A stretch of DNA of 64,000 nt, taken from assembly GCF_004143485.2 (NCBI RefSeq), contig NZ_ML974130.1:446621-510620 (forward strand). Reading direction: 5' to 3'. The notes below the pieces were generated by a model. That model was not told the origin of the DNA. It made no database searches and was given only the letters and a program-made list of their open reading frames with translations. The stretch is from Halorussus amylolyticus (GTDB taxonomy: Archaea > Halobacteriota > Halobacteria > Halobacteriales > Haladaptataceae). The position numbers and the translations under genes are program-made. This document shows, piece by piece, positions 24,317 to 37,801 of the stretch; position 1 is the first letter of the stretch; every line of letters starts with the position of its first letter.

Positions 24317-24357
24317 GGCTCTTGCTTTGCCCGAATGGGGGAAAGAGTTTGCGTCTC

Positions 24358-24392
24358 GACTCGTCTCGCCGAAATCGCTTTCGAGACGAGTC
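24358..24392. repeat. 11-bp inverted repeat upstream of map
   Basis: GACTCGTCTCG and CGAGACGAGTC are separated by 13 nt, about 42 bp upstream of the map start codon. It may be an operator. Confidence 0.6.
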
Positions 24393-24537
24393 CGAATCGC
24401 CCGCGTGCGCCACTGCGACGCCTCCGTGCGTCCACATGTCACCGATTCGGTTAAGGCCGACGTACCGAGTCCGTAACTCGGTGGTAACGCGGGTAATAGG
24501 CCGTCAACGCCCCGAACGGTACGAAACGGTTGGTCCC

Positions 24538-24546
24538 GTTTATTGG
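24538..24546 (+). promoter_or_regulatory. TATA box of the acidic surface protein gene
   Basis: GTTTATTGG lies 28-36 bp before the ATG. This supports the signal-peptide start and rules out the longer frame. Confidence 0.65.
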
Positions 24547-24573
24547 CGGTTCTGGCGATATGACTGGACGCCT

Positions 24574-26547
24574 ATGCAACGAGAGACCGGTGCGGTATTG
24601 ATGGCGATGCTCCTGATGCTCGCCGGCGTTCCGATGGCGACGCTCGGGGGTCCGTCGGACGCGACAGACACGAACGGAGTCACACTTCAAGACACGACCG
24701 TCGAGCGACTCGAACTCGCGAACGCCACGGTCGAGAACGCGACGATTGAGGAGATGAACGTCGAGTCGGTCGAAATCGAGAATCGCGACGAGACGCTCGA
24801 CGACGCGACGCTCCAGAACGTCACGCTCGGGGAACTGTCCTTCGAGAACGTGACGATGGAGAGCGTCGAGACCGACGACGAGTCGCTCTCCCAGCAACTC
24901 AGCGGGAACGCCTCGGTCCAGGAGGTCACGGTGCAGGACCTCACCATCGAGGAGATGAACGTCTCACAGCTCACGGTCGAGAGCCTGACCGTCCAGACCG
25001 ACGGTGAGGCGACCGCCGAGGAGACCACGGCTGAGGAGACCGAAACCACGACCGAGGAGGAGGAGGAGGACGCTGAGGAGGAAGACGCCGAGGAGGACGA
25101 GGAAACCACGACCGAGGAGGACGAGGAAGATGACCTCGGCGCTGACGACGAAGAGACGACCGAGGAGGAAGCCGACGGCGCTGACGACGAGGAGACCACG
25201 ACCGAGGAAGACGACCTCGCGCTCCAAGACGAGGAGACCACGACTGAGGAGGAAGACGCGGCTGACGACGAGGACGAGACCACGACCGAAGAAGACGAAG
25301 CGGACGACGAGGAAGAAACGACGACCGAAGAGGACGCGGAAACCACGGTCGCTGACGACAATCAGACCGCCGAGATGGACCAGGAAGTCGAGTCGGTCGA
25401 AGTCGAGAGCGCGACCATCCAGACCGTCGACGTACAGGAGATGATGGTCTCGAACATGGTGGTCGAGAGTCTCGACACCGGTGCTGACGACGAGGAGACG
25501 ACCACCGAGGAGACCGAAACGACGACTGAAGAGGAGGATGCTGAGGAAGAAGACGCCGAGGACGAGGAAGCCGAAGAGACCACGACAGAGGAGGAGGACG
25601 ACGACCTCGGCGCTGACGACGAAGAGACGACCGAGGAGGAAGCCGACGGCGCTGACGAAGAGGAAACCACGACCGAAGAAGACGACCTCGCCCTCCAAGA
25701 CGAGGAGACCACGACCGAAGAGGAGGAGGAAGATGCGGCTGACGAGGAAGACGCCGAGGACGAAGAGACGACCACCGAGGAAGACGCCGCTGACGAGGAG
25801 GACGAAGCTGACGACGAAGAGACGACCACCGCGACCGACGGCGGCCAAGACGGCACGGTCATCGAGAACGTCTCGGTCGGGACCGTAAGCGTCGAGAACG
25901 CGACCGTCGGGTCGGCCGCGGCCGAGGAGTCGAGCGTCGAGGAGGGCCAGGTCGCTATCCTCTCCATCCAGGACCTCTCGGCACCCTCGGAAGTCCAGCA
26001 GGGCGACAACTACACCGTCGAGGCGACCGTCTCGAACGAGGGCGGCGACCAGGTCGTCCAGCAGGTGTCCTACCGCATCGAGGGCAACGTCGTCGATTCC
26101 GACCTGACTCAGATTCCGGCCGGGAACTCGACCACGGTGACGTTCAACATCACCGAAAGCGATATCGGCGCGTTCCCCGCCGGGGAGTACACCCACGGCG
26201 TGTACACGCTGGGCGCGAACCAGACCGGTAATCTGACCATCACCGAAGCGAACGACACCGCGGACGGTGGCGCGGAGACGACCGAACCGGGTAACGAGAC
26301 CACGACCGAAGACGAAGACGGTGAGGACGAAGAAACCACGACTGAGGAAGACGCCGCTGACGACGAGGAAACCACGACCGAAGAGGAGGACGACGAAGCG
26401 GACGGTGAGGACGAAGAAACGACGACCGAGGAAGACGCGGCTGACGACGAGGAAGCCGCTGAGGACGAAGAAACGACGACCGAAGAGGACGAGGAAGAAG
26501 ACGAACTCGGCGCTGACGACGAAGAGACAACGACCGAAGAAGCCTGA
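24574..26547 (+). CDS. Secreted highly acidic protein with TTTEE repeats
   Basis: A 657-residue protein with a signal peptide (MQRETGAVLMAMLLMLAGVP). The layout is a solenoid-like region of repeating VxNxTIxEMNV units rich in N-glycosylation sequons (about 25-145), a long Asp/Glu/Thr linker, a second short solenoid-like segment, a second linker nearly copying the first, a third segment, a CARDB/Ig-like domain (about 465-565, EVQQGDNYTVEATVSNEGG), and a final acidic tail. I count about 17 TTTEE motifs, and LGADDEETT recurs three times. No C-terminal anchor is seen. Thr clusters suggest O-glycosylation. Probably an extracellular matrix-like protein; function unknown. Confidence 0.8.
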   Translation: MQRETGAVLMAMLLMLAGVPMATLGGPSDATDTNGVTLQDTTVERLELANATVENATIEEMNVESVEIENRDETLDDATLQNVTLGELSFENVTMESVETDDESLSQQLSGNASVQEVTVQDLTIEEMNVSQLTVESLTVQTDGEATAEETTAEETETTTEEEEEDAEEEDAEEDEETTTEEDEEDDLGADDEETTEEEADGADDEETTTEEDDLALQDEETTTEEEDAADDEDETTTEEDEADDEEETTTEEDAETTVADDNQTAEMDQEVESVEVESATIQTVDVQEMMVSNMVVESLDTGADDEETTTEETETTTEEEDAEEEDAEDEEAEETTTEEEDDDLGADDEETTEEEADGADEEETTTEEDDLALQDEETTTEEEEEDAADEEDAEDEETTTEEDAADEEDEADDEETTTATDGGQDGTVIENVSVGTVSVENATVGSAAAEESSVEEGQVAILSIQDLSAPSEVQQGDNYTVEATVSNEGGDQVVQQVSYRIEGNVVDSDLTQIPAGNSTTVTFNITESDIGAFPAGEYTHGVYTLGANQTGNLTITEANDTADGGAETTEPGNETTTEDEDGEDEETTTEEDAADDEETTTEEEDDEADGEDEETTTEEDAADDEEAAEDEETTTEEDEEEDELGADDEETTTEEA

Positions 26548-34020: not shown

Positions 34021-34689
34021 ATGAGAGTCGTCGTCCCCTTCGCCGCCAGTGAGCCGAAGACCCGACTCGAAGGCGTGCTCTCCGCCGCCGAGCGGTCTTC
34101 GTTCGCCGAAGCGATGCTCGCGGACGTGCTGGCGGCCGTGCGCGCGACCGGTCGCGACCCCGAAGTGCTCGCGACGGCTCCAGTCGCGGTGGACGCGCCG
34201 GTGACGGTGGACGACCGACCGCTCACGCCCGCAGTCAACGCCGTGCTGGCCGAGACCGAGGGACCCGTCGCAATCGTGATGGCCGACCTCGCGCTGGCGA
34301 CCCCCGACGCGCTGGCGCGACTGTTCGGAACCGACGCTGAGGTCGCACTCGTGCCGGGACGAGGCGGCGGCACGAACGCGCTCGTCGCGCGCCACCCCGA
34401 GTTTCGGGTGGACTACCACGGGACTTCGTATCTGGACCATCTGGAGATTGCGCGAGAGGTCGGGGCGGAGGTCGAGGTCGTTGACTCGCACCGACTCGCG
34501 ACTGATGTGGACGAGCGCAAGGACTTGGCGGAGGTGCTGATTCACGGAAAGAGCGAGGCGCAACGCGCCTCGGAAATGCGAGCGGTGAAACCGCGAGCGC
34601 GGAGCGAGTCGTTCAAGTGGCTGAAAGAGGCGGGGTTCGAACTGGCGAGCGACGAGAGTCGGGTCGGTGTGGTTCGGGACGGAATCTGA
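34021..34689 (+). CDS. cofC: 2-phospho-L-lactate guanylyltransferase CofC
   Basis: A 222-residue nucleotidyltransferase. It starts MRVVVPFAASEPKTRLEGVL, with the nucleotide-binding PKTRL, the metal-binding IVMADLAL and the VPGRGGGTNALV segment of the CofC family. It activates 2-phospholactate with GTP for coenzyme F420. The C-terminal part after DVDERKDLAEVLIHG is interrupted by about 20 foreign-looking residues (SEAQRASEMRAVKPRARSE) encoded by the hairpin element also found in the GNAT gene, before the family ending WLKEAGFEL. cofG follows after the ATPase/TOPRIM pair. Confidence 0.9.
   Translation: MRVVVPFAASEPKTRLEGVLSAAERSSFAEAMLADVLAAVRATGRDPEVLATAPVAVDAPVTVDDRPLTPAVNAVLAETEGPVAIVMADLALATPDALARLFGTDAEVALVPGRGGGTNALVARHPEFRVDYHGTSYLDHLEIAREVGAEVEVVDSHRLATDVDERKDLAEVLIHGKSEAQRASEMRAVKPRARSESFKWLKEAGFELASDESRVGVVRDGI
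34551..34598 (+). repeat. Protein-coding hairpin element, copy in cofC
   Basis: The 26-nt core (34551-34576) forms CGAGGCGC / GCGCCTCG around AAC, followed by GCGAGCGG and ACCGCGAGC. It keeps the cofC frame open and adds a charged segment to the protein. See the partner copy at 30659-30715. Confidence 0.8.
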
Positions 34690-34702
34690 GAGAAGGCCAC
34701 CG

Positions 34703-34710
34703 TTTTAATA
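34703..34710 (+). promoter_or_regulatory. TATA box of the ATPase/TOPRIM operon
   Basis: TTTTAATA lies 35-42 bp before the ATPase ATG and just after the cofC stop codon, so the inserted pair appears to have its own promoter. Confidence 0.55.
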
Positions 34711-34744
34711 CGATGAGGGCTAAGATGGGCGTAAGCGATTACCG

Positions 34745-36010
34745 ATGACGGAACTCGAACACATCGAGATTGAGGGGTTCAAAGGGTTGGAGCATGTGGA
34801 GTTCGAGCCGTCAGATATTAATTTGATTACCGGGCGGAACAACACCGGGAAGACTTCGTTCTTGGAAGCTGTGGATCTGTTCTTTAATCCTCGAAGTCTC
34901 GAAAACTTCGATGAAAACATCGATTCCGTGATCCATGTAGATTTCGACCGTACTGAGATTTGTGGAGAGACTGACCTACCAACCATCAAAACCAATATAA
35001 GATATCCATCATTATCGGAAGCGGAGACTATGTTTTTCGAGATAGCTTCTACCACCGGTGGCTTTCAGATGTCGCTTTCACAGTTTACTGCCGAAAAAGA
35101 AGAGTCTGATGCTCCAAAACAAATCTACGAAGAAATCCGGAACTCATTAGCAAACACGATAAAGGAAAAGATGGTCACGGAGTCCACTGAAGGACTCCAA
35201 GATGAGATACTAATATTGTCGACAACGGATAACGAATATCCGTGTTTTTTGGGTGGAGAAAGAAGCACCTCACTCATGAGAAGTATTCTAGAGGAGATAG
35301 TTGATGAATTTAGCCAGAACGAGAATGTCACTGATTTGGGGCTCTATCATAACCAAATGGGTCCAAGAGGGTTCTTCGAATTTTATTCAAGAAGACTAGA
35401 TCTTGGTCTCCCTCCCGAAAACACATTTATAAACCAACCAGAACTAACTGATTCAGTCACATTCATCCAATCGACAAATCCTACTGAGCGCATTGGGCAA
35501 GCTGACGACAATCAAGAACCGATCAAGACAGACGATATCAGCGACTACATAAAACAAACAGGGATAGTAGATAACCTCAAAACTTTCACGCTTGACTACC
35601 TCGTTTTCGAAGACGAAACCGGGGAGAAAAATCAAATACCGTTCGATTTCATGGGTGACGGTTTCAAGTCGATAGTCGGCTTGCTCTGGGAACTCATGGA
35701 CGAAGACGTTCAAAACGACATCGTCCTTCTCGAAGAACCGGAAACCCACATGCATCCCGGATACATTCGTGAAGTCGTCTACTTCCTTATCAACCTCGCC
35801 CGCGAGGAGGACGTGCAACTCTTCATCACTACCCACGACAGCGACTTCATCAACGGCTTTTTCACCGAGAATCTGACTGACGAAGAGGAAGCCTATCTCG
35901 AAGACGAATTCTCCCTCCTCCGGATGGAAGAGGACTCGGCAGTGGTCGAGGACTACGCGACTGCCCGCGAGAATCTGAAAGACCTCCACCTCGACCTGCG
36001 AGGGATTTGA
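34745..36010 (+). CDS. OLD/AAA_15-type ATPase of a two-gene module
   Basis: A 421-residue ABC/SMC-like ATPase. Walker A is GRNNTGKTS at residues 30-38, a signature-like MGDGFKSI is near 303-310, Walker B is DIVLLEEPETHMHP at 325-338 and the H-loop is TTHDSDF at 362-368. The middle region (90-280) is family-specific. It lacks the C-terminal TOPRIM domain of fused OLD nucleases, but a TOPRIM gene begins at the very next base. The coding sequence is AT-rich for this genome (24 G+C in the 60 bases from 35101), which suggests acquisition. The arrangement recalls AriA of the PARIS defence system or a split OLD system; antiviral function is inferred. Confidence 0.82.
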   Translation: MTELEHIEIEGFKGLEHVEFEPSDINLITGRNNTGKTSFLEAVDLFFNPRSLENFDENIDSVIHVDFDRTEICGETDLPTIKTNIRYPSLSEAETMFFEIASTTGGFQMSLSQFTAEKEESDAPKQIYEEIRNSLANTIKEKMVTESTEGLQDEILILSTTDNEYPCFLGGERSTSLMRSILEEIVDEFSQNENVTDLGLYHNQMGPRGFFEFYSRRLDLGLPPENTFINQPELTDSVTFIQSTNPTERIGQADDNQEPIKTDDISDYIKQTGIVDNLKTFTLDYLVFEDETGEKNQIPFDFMGDGFKSIVGLLWELMDEDVQNDIVLLEEPETHMHPGYIREVVYFLINLAREEDVQLFITTHDSDFINGFFTENLTDEEEAYLEDEFSLLRMEEDSAVVEDYATARENLKDLHLDLRGI

Positions 36011-36619
36011 ATGAAACACATCATTCTCTGTGAGGGGAAGCACGACGTTCACCTTGTATCATCTTTCTTTGAGGAGCGGGGCGGAAGTTTCGAGCTGAAA
36101 ACCGTTCTCGGCGAGGAAATCCAATCCTCGATGCGAGGTGAAGAGTCCCGTCAAATTTCGAACTTCCGGGAGAGACGGAATCCGTACCACGTCCTCGTCA
36201 AGTCTGACAATGGAAAACAGGAGTTGGAGAAGGTCTTCTCGGTCGTCGTGAACCAACTGCTTCGAATCGACCCCGAGATTACCGTTCTCGTAGACCTCGA
36301 CGGCGGAACTCTCGAAACTTTCGTAGATGGGCTAGACGAGCGAATCCGCACTCGACACGACAGGCTGGAACTCGATGCTCCTGAAGTAGCCGAGCGAAAC
36401 CACGACATGGTGGCCGGGGTCTGTGAAGTCCTAACGACGAACGGCAAGAAGAAAGGAGAGTTCCAAATCGTCGCCTTCGAGCAGACCCTAGAACGCGTTG
36501 CTGACGTGTCTCGCGACGACGAGACCGACGAATGGAAAGCCGGAATCGAGGACTTTCTCGGCGAAGCAGACCACATCTACGACTTTCTCCATTCGGTACT
36601 ACCGGACAAAGAGAACTGA
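36011..36619 (+). CDS. TOPRIM-domain protein, partner of the ATPase
   Basis: A 202-residue protein beginning MKHIILCEGKHDVHLVSSFF. The TOPRIM Glu is E8 in CEGKHD and the DxD pair is D95/D97 in TVLVDLDGGT, so the metal site of a nuclease looks intact. The rest is mostly helical and charged. Its ATG directly follows the TGA of the ATPase gene, indicating tight co-expression. The protein is shorter than the PARIS AriB proteins I know (about 300 residues), so it may be a distinct subtype. Composition lies between the AT-rich ATPase gene and host genes. Confidence 0.78.
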   Translation: MKHIILCEGKHDVHLVSSFFEERGGSFELKTVLGEEIQSSMRGEESRQISNFRERRNPYHVLVKSDNGKQELEKVFSVVVNQLLRIDPEITVLVDLDGGTLETFVDGLDERIRTRHDRLELDAPEVAERNHDMVAGVCEVLTTNGKKKGEFQIVAFEQTLERVADVSRDDETDEWKAGIEDFLGEADHIYDFLHSVLPDKEN

Positions 36620-36673
36620 TTCCAAGTAACCGCGAAAGCAAGGATTTTCCCGCCGAAGCCAGAACTCGATACA

Positions 36674-37801
36674 ATGGCAGGTGCCGAGATCCCGGGGGCC
36701 GCCGAGTACGATATCCGAATCGAGTTCGACGAGCGCGAGGCCTCGAACCTCCTTGAAATCAACCCCGGTGACGTATCCCCCGCCGACGAACTCACGTTCG
36801 CCAAGAACGTCTTCGTCCCGCTCACCACGGCCTGCCGGTACACCTGCACCTACTGCACCTACTTCGACCCGCCGGGAGAGGCGTCCCTGCTCTCGCCCGA
36901 GGAAGTCAGAGACATCCTCGAAACCGGCGCTGACGCCGGATGCACCGAGGCGCTCTTTACGTTCGGCGACGACCCCGACGACCGCTACGACCGGATTCAC
37001 GAACAACTCGACTCGTGGGGCCACGATTCGATTCACACCTACCTCCGGGAAGTCTGCGAAATAGCGCTCGACGTGGGCCTGCTCCCCCACAGCAACCCCG
37101 GCGACCAGACCCGCGAGCAGATGGCGACGGTCGCCGACGTGAACGCCTCGATGGGCGTGATGCTCGAAACGGTCGCCGACGTGGACGCCCACGCGGGACC
37201 CCGCCGAAAGAATCCGGGCCAGCGACTCGACACGATTCGAACCGCGGGCGAACTCGGCGTGCCGTTCACCACTGGCCTGCTGGTCGGCATCGGCGAAGAT
37301 TGGCGCGACCGCGCGAAAAGCCTGCTCGCCATCCGCGACCTGCACGAGCGATACGGTCACGTGCAGGAGGTCATCGTCCAGAACGTGGTTCCGAACGAGC
37401 GCTCGAACTTCGACCAACCCTCCGTCGAGACGATGCGCCGGGTGGTGTCGATGGCGCGGTACTGCTTGCCGGACGAGATTTCGGTGCAGGTCCCGCCGAA
37501 CCTCTCTCCGACCCGCGACCTCCTCGACTGCGGCGTGGACGACTTGGGCGGCGTCTCGCCGATTACGGACGACTATATCAACCCCGAGTACGAGTGGCCC
37601 GCGCTCCGGGAGTTGGAGGATATCGCCGACGAGGCCGGGGTTCCGCTCCGCGAGCGACTCCCGGTGTATCGGCGGTTTCTGTCGGACGGAGTCGGTGGCG
37701 AGGCCACAGAGAACGAGTGGGTTTCCGAGACGATTCGGCGAGCAATCGAGGCCGACGACGAGGCTGGCAAGCGGTATCGGGCCGTTCTCGACGCCGAGTA
37801 G
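36674..37801 (+). CDS. cofG: FO synthase subunit CofG
   Basis: A 375-residue radical SAM enzyme with the cluster motif CRYTCTYC (C54, C58, C61). With CofH it makes the deazaflavin FO from the tyrosine-derived intermediate and the ribityl pyrimidine, the chromophore part of coenzyme F420. Length and conserved segments (LLVGIGEDWRDR, QNVVPNERS) are standard. It lies 54 bp after the TOPRIM gene; I recall cofC and cofG being adjacent in related genomes, so the pair between them is probably an insertion. Confidence 0.93.
   Translation: MAGAEIPGAAEYDIRIEFDEREASNLLEINPGDVSPADELTFAKNVFVPLTTACRYTCTYCTYFDPPGEASLLSPEEVRDILETGADAGCTEALFTFGDDPDDRYDRIHEQLDSWGHDSIHTYLREVCEIALDVGLLPHSNPGDQTREQMATVADVNASMGVMLETVADVDAHAGPRRKNPGQRLDTIRTAGELGVPFTTGLLVGIGEDWRDRAKSLLAIRDLHERYGHVQEVIVQNVVPNERSNFDQPSVETMRRVVSMARYCLPDEISVQVPPNLSPTRDLLDCGVDDLGGVSPITDDYINPEYEWPALRELEDIADEAGVPLRERLPVYRRFLSDGVGGEATENEWVSETIRRAIEADDEAGKRYRAVLDAE

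What the first reader, a model, noticed from the sequence alone, without database searches (positions are those of the whole stretch)
34745..36619. Split ATPase-TOPRIM module inserted in the F420 locus: candidate anti-phage system
Seen: an ABC/OLD-like ATPase with intact Walker A, Walker B and H-loop, lacking TOPRIM, followed with zero spacing by a small TOPRIM protein with intact E and DxD. The ATPase gene is AT-rich, has its own TATA box, and sits between cofC and cofG. Known: fused OLD nucleases and two-gene PARIS (AriA/AriB) systems use these domains for defence. Inference: a mobile haloarchaeal defence pair, possibly a distinct subtype because the TOPRIM protein has only about 200 residues.
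Basis: partly seen in the sequence, partly recalled or inferred. Interest (0 to 1): 0.76.

Follow-up and report, generated by a model that had tools for sequence, protein, structure and literature searches.

The report
Swappable archaeal ATPase–TOPRIM immunity pair
Two adjoining genes in a salt-loving archaeon encode an ATP-driven switch and a small nuclease; the pair comes and goes at one fixed chromosomal spot and its parts are shuffled between strains, which suggests a little-known antiviral system, though nobody has tested it.

Summary
An intact 421-residue OLD/Rad50-type ATPase is followed in frame, with no spacer, by an intact 202-residue TOPRIM protein, between cofC and cofG in a Halorussus-type genome.

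It is not PARIS. The TOPRIM matches no AriB model. By profile the nearest named thing is PADLOC's unvalidated candidate PDC-M38 (DUF3226 TOPRIM), and only weakly. The pair belongs to a mostly archaeal branch, always ATPase then TOPRIM, marked by an invariant ATPase C-terminus (DLRG) and a shorter TOPRIM.

New here: in 28 genomes of the family the pair occurs in 8, always directly upstream of cofG and nowhere else. The flanking-gene tree needs 8 gain/loss changes, so it is as scattered as chance. The alleles are mosaic. The ATPase middle (residues 61-262) groups strains one way; the ATPase C-terminus plus TOPRIM groups them another way, each with full bootstrap support. The middle also has markedly lower GC3 than its flanks.

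Best reading: a defence-type module with an exchangeable sensor segment and a TOPRIM nuclease effector. Defence is inferred, not shown. An archaeal OLD relative (Cran1) is a published non-defence precedent.

The parts
34021..34689 (+). cofC (2-phospho-L-lactate guanylyltransferase), left flank
   Evidence: TIGR03552 2.3e-49
34692..34744 (+). conserved leader of the pair with TATA-like box at 34703-34710, 35-42 nt before the ATPase ATG
   Evidence: consensus GAAGGC(C/T/G)A(C/T)(C/G)GTTTT(A/T)AT-like in 7 same-genus alleles, weaker in G123
34745..36010 (+). ATPase gene, 421 aa, OLD/Rad50-type ABC ATPase (Walker A 34832-34855, Walker B 35720-35737, H-loop His 35834-35836)
   Evidence: AAA_15 1.3e-29; PDC-M38A 4.3e-29; fold; motifs in 23 of 23 rows
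34745..34924 (+). segment N (residues 1-60), conserved lobe with Walker A
   Evidence: 65-88% identity between the 8 alleles
34925..35530 (+). segment M (residues 61-262), hypervariable, low GC3, exchanged between alleles; proposed sensor segment
   Evidence: 15-72% identity, own tree topology, GC3 0.41 against 0.62 and 0.67
35735..36007 (+). segment C2 (residues 331-421), Walker B/H-loop region to the invariant C-terminal DLRG; inherited together with the TOPRIM
   Evidence: within-family identity correlation C2-TOPRIM 0.90, M-TOPRIM 0.01; topology
36011..36619 (+). TOPRIM gene, 202 aa; putative metal ligands E8 (36032), D12, D95 (36293), D97 (36299), E161 (36491)
   Evidence: invariant in 21 of 21; fold nearest OLD TOPRIMs and PH0156
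36620..36673 (+). cofG leader; its sequence type follows the TOPRIM type of the allele
36674..37801 (+). cofG, right flank
   Evidence: NF004884 2.7e-142

Best explanation
A two-gene, OLD-like ATPase-TOPRIM conflict (most likely antiviral) module of a mostly archaeal branch. Proposed mechanism: the ABC-type ATPase dimerises on ATP and acts as sensor and switch. Its middle segment, inserted between the two nucleotide-binding lobes, reads an infection cue and is exchanged between strains as a cassette. Its C-terminal lobe and DLRG tail hold or activate the small TOPRIM protein, a two-metal nuclease that cuts host or viral nucleic acid when the sensor is triggered. Shown: the genes, motifs, obligate pairing, patchiness at one site, mosaic alleles and the separate GC3 of the middle segment; the fold class is predicted. 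Inferred: ATPase and nuclease activity, physical complex, sensing by the middle segment, the target, and defence itself.
For: Pairing: 24 of 24 haloarchaeal loci read have ATPase directly upstream of TOPRIM. In named genomes 26 of the 80 loci kept carry the TOPRIM next to the ATPase, 20 of them archaeal, from haloarchaea to Thermoplasmata, Altiarchaeales, Nitrososphaerota and Baldrarchaeum. Patchiness: 17 of 391 class genomes; 8 of 28 family genomes, all 8 beside cofG; 8 changes on a 27-row cofG+cofC tree, shuffled mean 7.1. Mosaic: segment M supports one quartet topology in 100% of 300 bootstraps for 8 of 8 quartets; C2 and TOPRIM each support another in 100% for 8 of 8. M is lowest in GC3 in 20 of 23 ATPases, while the Rad50 control in the same genome dips only from 0.88 to 0.80. 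Active site: E8, D12, D95, D97 and E161 invariant, matching by my reading the metal ligands E400, E404, D455, D457 and E508 of BpOLD (passages of PMC6755086). Fold: TOPRIM alone, top VIA rows are TsOLD Z 8.7, BpOLD 8.2, PH0156 8.2, XccOLD 7.9. Kin: four bacterial-type relatives tested are PDC-M38B at 4.8e-82 to 1.9e-103 (4 of 4).
Against: No experiment. No defence island at this site; neighbours of the other haloarchaeal copies show only modest defence association, one type I methyltransferase and two HerA genes nearby. The window TOPRIM matches PDC-M38B only at 6.2e-6 and over less than half of the model, and PDC-M38 is itself an untested candidate. The C-terminal catalytic Lys of BpOLD (K562) has no invariant counterpart. 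The C2-TOPRIM linkage may be mere adjacency. Cran1, an archaeal OLD protein, showed no antiviral effect and acts in the cell cycle (PMC12796447). Patchy shuffled genes can also be toxin-antitoxin or selfish genes. No match in 72,556 plasmid records (TOPRIM query) or 50,697 phage records (ATPase query).
Confidence: 0.6

Rival explanations
1. A housekeeping chromosome factor (cell cycle, repair or recombination), as Cran1 in Sulfolobales or Rad50/RecF.
For: ATPase head aligns best with SMC/Rad50 heads (Z about 20); an archaeal OLD enzyme has a cell-cycle role and no detectable antiviral effect (PMC12796447, abstract, sections 7 and 11).
Against: Cran1 relatives follow the species tree; this pair is not found in 20 of 28 family genomes and needs 8 changes on a 27-row tree. 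Decayed copies exist. Segments are exchanged between alleles.
Confidence: 0.12
2. A selfish or toxin-antitoxin pair: TOPRIM as toxin, ATPase as its antidote, without infection sensing.
For: Abutting two-gene unit, patchiness, decayed copies; Pfam AAA_21, described as putative AbiEii toxin, also matches the ATPase (6.8e-24).
Against: A conserved ATP site in all aligned copies suits a regulated switch better than a simple antidote; a hypervariable exchangeable middle segment is not expected of a plain antidote.
Confidence: 0.13
3. A true PARIS (AriA/AriB) subtype.
For: Split ATPase and TOPRIM; a PADLOC AriA model is the best single hit of the ATPase, 5.3e-31.
Against: That hit covers the same span as general AAA_15; no AriB model is hit at E<=1 nor by any of 21 aligned TOPRIMs at E<=0.01; published Class 4 proteins are reported as restricted to bacteria (PMC12796447, section 7).
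Confidence: 0.04
4. A function tied to coenzyme F420, since in this family it always sits beside cofG.
For: 8 of 8 family copies lie directly upstream of cofG and none elsewhere.
Against: 18 of the 26 family genomes with a readable interval lack it there; none of the 16 haloarchaeal loci outside the family has a cofC or cofG match within the 12-17 kb read.
Confidence: 0.04

Closest known systems
PADLOC candidate PDC-M38 (PDC-M38A ATPase + PDC-M38B TOPRIM; Pfam DUF3226)
   Same: Two adjacent genes, ATPase then TOPRIM; ATPase hits M38A at 4.3e-29 and the window TOPRIM hits M38B models first (6.2e-6).
   Different: TOPRIM 178-213 aa against 241-258 aa; ATPase ends in DLRG against EVR/EMR/ELR; TOPRIM match weak and half-length; in A1 no single M38B model hits more than 6 of 21 members, and mad4 hits 7 of 21. 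I found no tested function for PDC-M38.
OLD nucleases (TsOLD 6p74, BpOLD, XccOLD) and Gabija GajA
   Same: ATPase profile's best solved relative is TsOLD (3e-11); TOPRIM fold nearest OLD TOPRIMs; same acidic ligand set by my reading.
   Different: Two chains instead of one; no GajB helicase; no clear counterpart of K562; overall TM only about 0.2-0.3.
PARIS (AriA + AriB)
   Same: ATPase and TOPRIM on separate genes.
   Different: No AriB match.
MADS mad3/mad4
   Same: ATPase hits MADS3 1.5e-7, below its cut-off; TOPRIM relatives hit mad4 weakly (best 2.4e-4).
   Different: Two genes only, flanked by cofC and cofG.
PH0156 (2p62), Pyrococcus, hypothetical protein
   Same: Archaeal protein with similar fold, Z 8.2, 157 aligned.
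   Different: Function unknown; that it is a DUF3226 protein is my recollection, not from a call.
Cran1, archaeal OLD (class 5)
   Same: Archaeal OLD-type ATPase-nuclease.
   Different: One chain, vertically inherited, cell-cycle role (PMC12796447).

Membership tests
PDC-M38 | ATPase matches PDC-M38A | tested here: met
   4.3e-29; many related ATPase models also match
PDC-M38 | partner matches PDC-M38B along its length | tested here: inconclusive
   6.2e-6, model positions 1-97 of 240; at most 6 of 21 relatives per model; bacterial-type relatives match at 4.8e-82 to 1.9e-103
PARIS | TOPRIM partner matches AriB | tested here: not met
   no AriB model at E<=1, none in 21 rows at E<=0.01; profile level only
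PARIS | ATPase and TOPRIM on separate adjacent genes | tested here: met
Gabija | ATPase-TOPRIM in one chain plus GajB helicase next door | tested here: not met
   two ORFs, flanks cofC and cofG
OLD class 1 | ATPase and TOPRIM in one chain | tested here: not met
   in-frame TGA between them
OLD-type TOPRIM nuclease | E, E/D, DxD and distal E metal ligands | tested here: met
   E8, D12, D95, D97, E161 invariant in 21 of 21; equivalence to BpOLD residues is by reading sequence and PMC6755086, not by superposition
OLD-type TOPRIM nuclease | C-terminal catalytic lysine (BpOLD K562) | tested here: inconclusive
   no invariant Lys after E161; K64 is invariant but its place in the site is unknown
OLD-type TOPRIM nuclease | metal-dependent cleavage of nucleic acid | not testable with these tools
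   needs purified protein
antiviral defence system | protection from virus or plasmid | not testable with these tools
   needs challenge assay
antiviral defence system | patchy distribution with exchange between lineages | tested here: met
antiviral defence system | enrichment among defence genes | tested here: inconclusive

The most novel reading that the evidence does not exclude
A haloarchaeal immune locus with a fixed chromosomal address (directly upstream of cofG) at which the sensor segment of the ATPase is swapped as a cassette, independently of the co-inherited ATPase tail, TOPRIM nuclease and cofG leader; in effect an archaeal counterpart of specificity-subunit shuffling, in a branch of ATPase-nuclease pairs for which I found no validated member.
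Probability: 0.4. Interest if true: 0.72.

Novelty: new variant of a known kind. Interest (0 to 1): 0.53.

Why it matters
Archaeal defence is poorly charted, and a recent survey leans on many unvalidated PDC candidates (PMC12988326, abstract and passages). This pair gives a testable archaeal branch of the OLD/TOPRIM world, with natural alleles that already separate a variable, foreign-looking middle segment from a co-inherited tail and nuclease. That makes 'which part senses, which part cuts' directly testable by comparing natural alleles. It also tests whether archaeal OLD relatives are immune (as in bacteria) or cellular (as Cran1).

Tried and rejected
PARIS membership: rejected at profile level.

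TOPRIM sequence against solved structures: phmmer gave only weak hits, mainly to RNA polymerase; the 36-row profile gave two weak hits, a chain named OT3 and 1t6t (E 0.0088 and 0.29). Neither is used as evidence.

Foldseek with the TOPRIM model gave no convincing neighbour (best E 9.8e-4, an esterase). The OLD rows come from the VIA second look, with only a small margin over unrelated P-loop folds (next row Z 7.5). RNase M5 and AriB were not among the rows shown; that excludes nothing.

The read-through model aligned over both domains with GajA, OLD and retron Eco8 in Foldseek, but with about 20 A rmsd, so no shared domain arrangement is claimed; OLD and GajA are not among the 50 VIA rows shown.

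Remnants of the pair in pair-free intervals: none found (hmmsearch --max, best E outside the 8 carriers 0.25; only intervals of 200 bases or more were scanned).

AU tests gave only partial rejection for segment M: holding G000+G401+G171 together p 0.093, holding G400+G404+G408+G406 together p 0.030. The strong statement rests on the bootstrapped quartets, a distance method with 300 replicates (the printed header says 500, wrongly).

Segments N and C1 gave no clear topology.

Neighbourhood test: 63 PADLOC models matched among 111 neighbour ORFs against 20 among 111 control ORFs. I do not use the ratio, since one helicase and one methyltransferase account for most of it. From the ORF lists, I gave 111 of 113 neighbours (the two left out lie in decayed pairs) and 111 of 132 controls (mostly short ones left out). 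Pfam was run on the neighbours only.

Viral contigs: 14 relatives of the ATPase, at E 3e-11 at best, not followed up. Literature: 'PDC-M38' 0 papers, 'DUF3226' 0 papers, TOPRIM+ATPase+haloarchaea+defense system 0 papers; the MADS search brought nothing relevant in the six rows shown.

Full report
OBSERVATION. The ATPase is a Pfam AAA_15 protein (1.3e-29) with intact Walker A, Walker B and H-loop. The small protein matches no Pfam model above its cut-off, but carries the TOPRIM signature E8-G9-xx-D12 and D95-L-D97. The interval is the AT-rich island of the window: 35001-36000 has GC 0.461, the lowest of 64 one-kilobase bins. The TATA-like box is real in the sense that its surroundings are conserved in the other alleles.

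RELATIVES. A search of 391 class genomes found the TOPRIM in 13 with the single sequence and in 17 with a 21-row profile. I read 24 haloarchaeal loci including the window. All 24 have the ATPase directly upstream of the TOPRIM, mostly with a gap of 0-5 nt or an overlap of 4 nt. In three (L028, L033, L037) the TOPRIM frame holds stops, and in L037 the ATPase is broken as well. In 19 of these 26 the ATPase ends in DLRG and the TOPRIM has 178-213 residues; all 19 are archaeal. The other seven (six bacteria and one Methanosarcinales MAG) have EVR/EMR/ELR-like ends and TOPRIMs of 241-258 residues. Four of these seven were tested; they are PADLOC PDC-M38B at 4.8e-82 to 1.9e-103 and Pfam DUF3226 above cut-off. 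The DLRG group reaches these models only weakly. So the window pair belongs to a mostly archaeal branch next to PDC-M38.

WHERE IT SITS. The TOPRIM is in 8 of 28 and in each only once, always directly upstream of cofG. Of the 28, two intervals cannot be read (G175: no cofC match in the stretch; G407: contig end). In the remaining 26, eight hold the pair and 18 do not; 10 of these 18 intervals are under 300 bases and 8 are 767-1326 bases. The longer ones hold a minus-strand ORF that I recognise by eye as a type I signal peptidase (not tested), and no trace of the pair. On a tree of cofG plus cofC from 27 genomes the presence of the pair needs 8 changes, that is, every carrier stands apart from the others; shuffled labels average 7.1. 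Thus the site is fixed while presence is as scattered as chance. None of the 16 haloarchaeal loci outside the family has a cofC or cofG match within the 12-17 kb read.

MOSAIC ALLELES. The eight alleles at this site were compared by segment. N (1-60) is 65-88% identical in all pairs. M (61-262, in two halves) falls into types: G000, G401, G400 and G404 share one (53-72%), G408 and G406 another (33-46%), G171 and G123 are alone. C2 (331-421) and TOPRIM fall differently: G000, G401 and G171 together (C2 88-95%, TOPRIM halves 57-76%), G400, G404, G408 and G406 together (C2 86-92%, TOPRIM halves 77-92%). The window allele is therefore closer to G400 in M (59-66% against 18-29% for G171) and closer to G171 in TOPRIM (66-76% against 28-39% for G400). 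For all eight quartets that test this, M supports one topology in 100% of 300 bootstraps, and C2 and TOPRIM each support the other in 100%. Maximum-likelihood trees agree in topology, with weaker tests for M, where branches are long. Within the family (28 pairs of alleles) the identities of C2 and TOPRIM correlate at 0.90, those of M and TOPRIM at 0.01; among the other 182 pairs of rows M and TOPRIM correlate at 0.67. The shuffling is thus most evident at this locus.

TWO FURTHER SIGNS OF EXCHANGE. First, M has the lowest GC3 of the three parts in 20 of 23 haloarchaeal ATPases (the exceptions are L024, L029 and L032). In the window it is 0.41 against 0.62 and 0.67; at four-fold sites 0.40 against 0.75 and 0.73. 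The Rad50 gene of the same genome, with its coiled-coil insert at the same place, dips only from 0.88 to 0.80. Second, the leader of cofG follows the TOPRIM type: the four alleles of the second type carry a CTTCCAAAC(C/T)CTTTTC element (CTTCCAAAC(T/C)CTTTTCGTC in G400), the form seen in the sister genera, whereas the first-type alleles resemble pair-free same-genus sites such as G402 and G373. This suggests that ATPase tail, TOPRIM and cofG leader were brought in together by homologous recombination from a sister-genus-like donor. That is inference from short leaders.

STRUCTURE AND ACTIVE SITE. A read-through chain of both genes folds with mean pLDDT 91.1. Foldseek ranks GajA, TsOLD and retron Eco8 first, then Rad50; VIA ranks SMC and Rad50 heads at Z about 20, for the ATPase part only. 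By profile the closest solved ATPase is TsOLD, 3e-11. The TOPRIM alone folds with pLDDT 92.3; its best VIA rows are TsOLD (Z 8.7, 128 aligned, 3.4 A), BpOLD (8.2), PH0156 (8.2) and XccOLD (7.9). Nine residues are invariant in 21 rows: E8, G9, D12, K64, G68, D95, D97, F156 and E161. BpOLD binds two metals through E400, D455, D457 and E404, T506, E508, with K562 assisting, and RNase M5 has counterparts of these acids (passages of PMC6755086). I read E8, D12, D95, D97 and E161 as the counterparts, with no clear counterpart of K562. AriB is a proposed two-metal RNase that cuts tRNA, with a site like RNase M5 (passages of PMC12409363), so both DNA and tRNA remain possible targets.

FUNCTION. For defence speak the family kinship, patchiness, exchange, decay of copies and the variable middle segment. 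Genomic neighbours give little: one copy (L029) has a full type I methyltransferase gene about 0.9 kb downstream, and two related copies (L035, L036) have a HerA gene just upstream; many other neighbours are metabolic. Against a simple answer stands Cran1: a class of archaeal OLD proteins without detectable antiviral effect and with a cell-cycle role, but inherited vertically (PMC12796447, abstract, sections 7 and 11). The same paper names eleven uncharacterised OLD clades, one (U8) restricted to Halobacteriales; whether it overlaps with this family I could not check. PDC systems are described as putative candidates, most without experimental validation (passages of PMC12988326).

VERDICT. A real, intact, conserved two-gene unit; most likely a defence-type ATPase-TOPRIM pair of an archaeal branch near PDC-M38; not PARIS. 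New is the fixed-site, cassette-like exchange of the ATPase middle segment. Defence and mechanism remain inference.

Noticed in passing
window 24322-26547 (+), repeats 25054-26542: Purine-rich stretch (AT skew 0.64 at 25001-26000) inside a long ORF made of Asp/Glu/Thr-rich repeats (TTEE, ADDEE), probably an acidic secreted or surface protein.
   Followed up: partly
L028, L033, L037 (genomes G173, G124): Two genomes of one genus carry four copies each of the TOPRIM, three of the eight with in-frame stops: repeated gain and decay of the pair.
   Followed up: partly
L082, L084-L086, L088-L091, L022, cofC-cofG interval: In the sister genera the cofC-cofG interval holds a minus-strand ORF that looks like a type I signal peptidase (recognised by eye); the pair in G123 lies between it and cofG.
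   Followed up: no
L073, interval upstream of the ATPase: An additional minus-strand ORF of 263 aa, TrmB-like by eye, sits between cofC and the pair in G406.
   Followed up: no
L035:4717-7403, L036:4706-6957: HerA-type helicase gene plus a ~100 aa ORF directly upstream of the pair on the same strand, in two genomes; possible four-gene variant.
   Followed up: partly
window 34711-34744 and same place in the other alleles: The 5' leader between TATA-like box and start codon is unusually conserved (ATGACGGCTAAG-like) among alleles whose middle segments differ; possible regulatory site.
   Followed up: no
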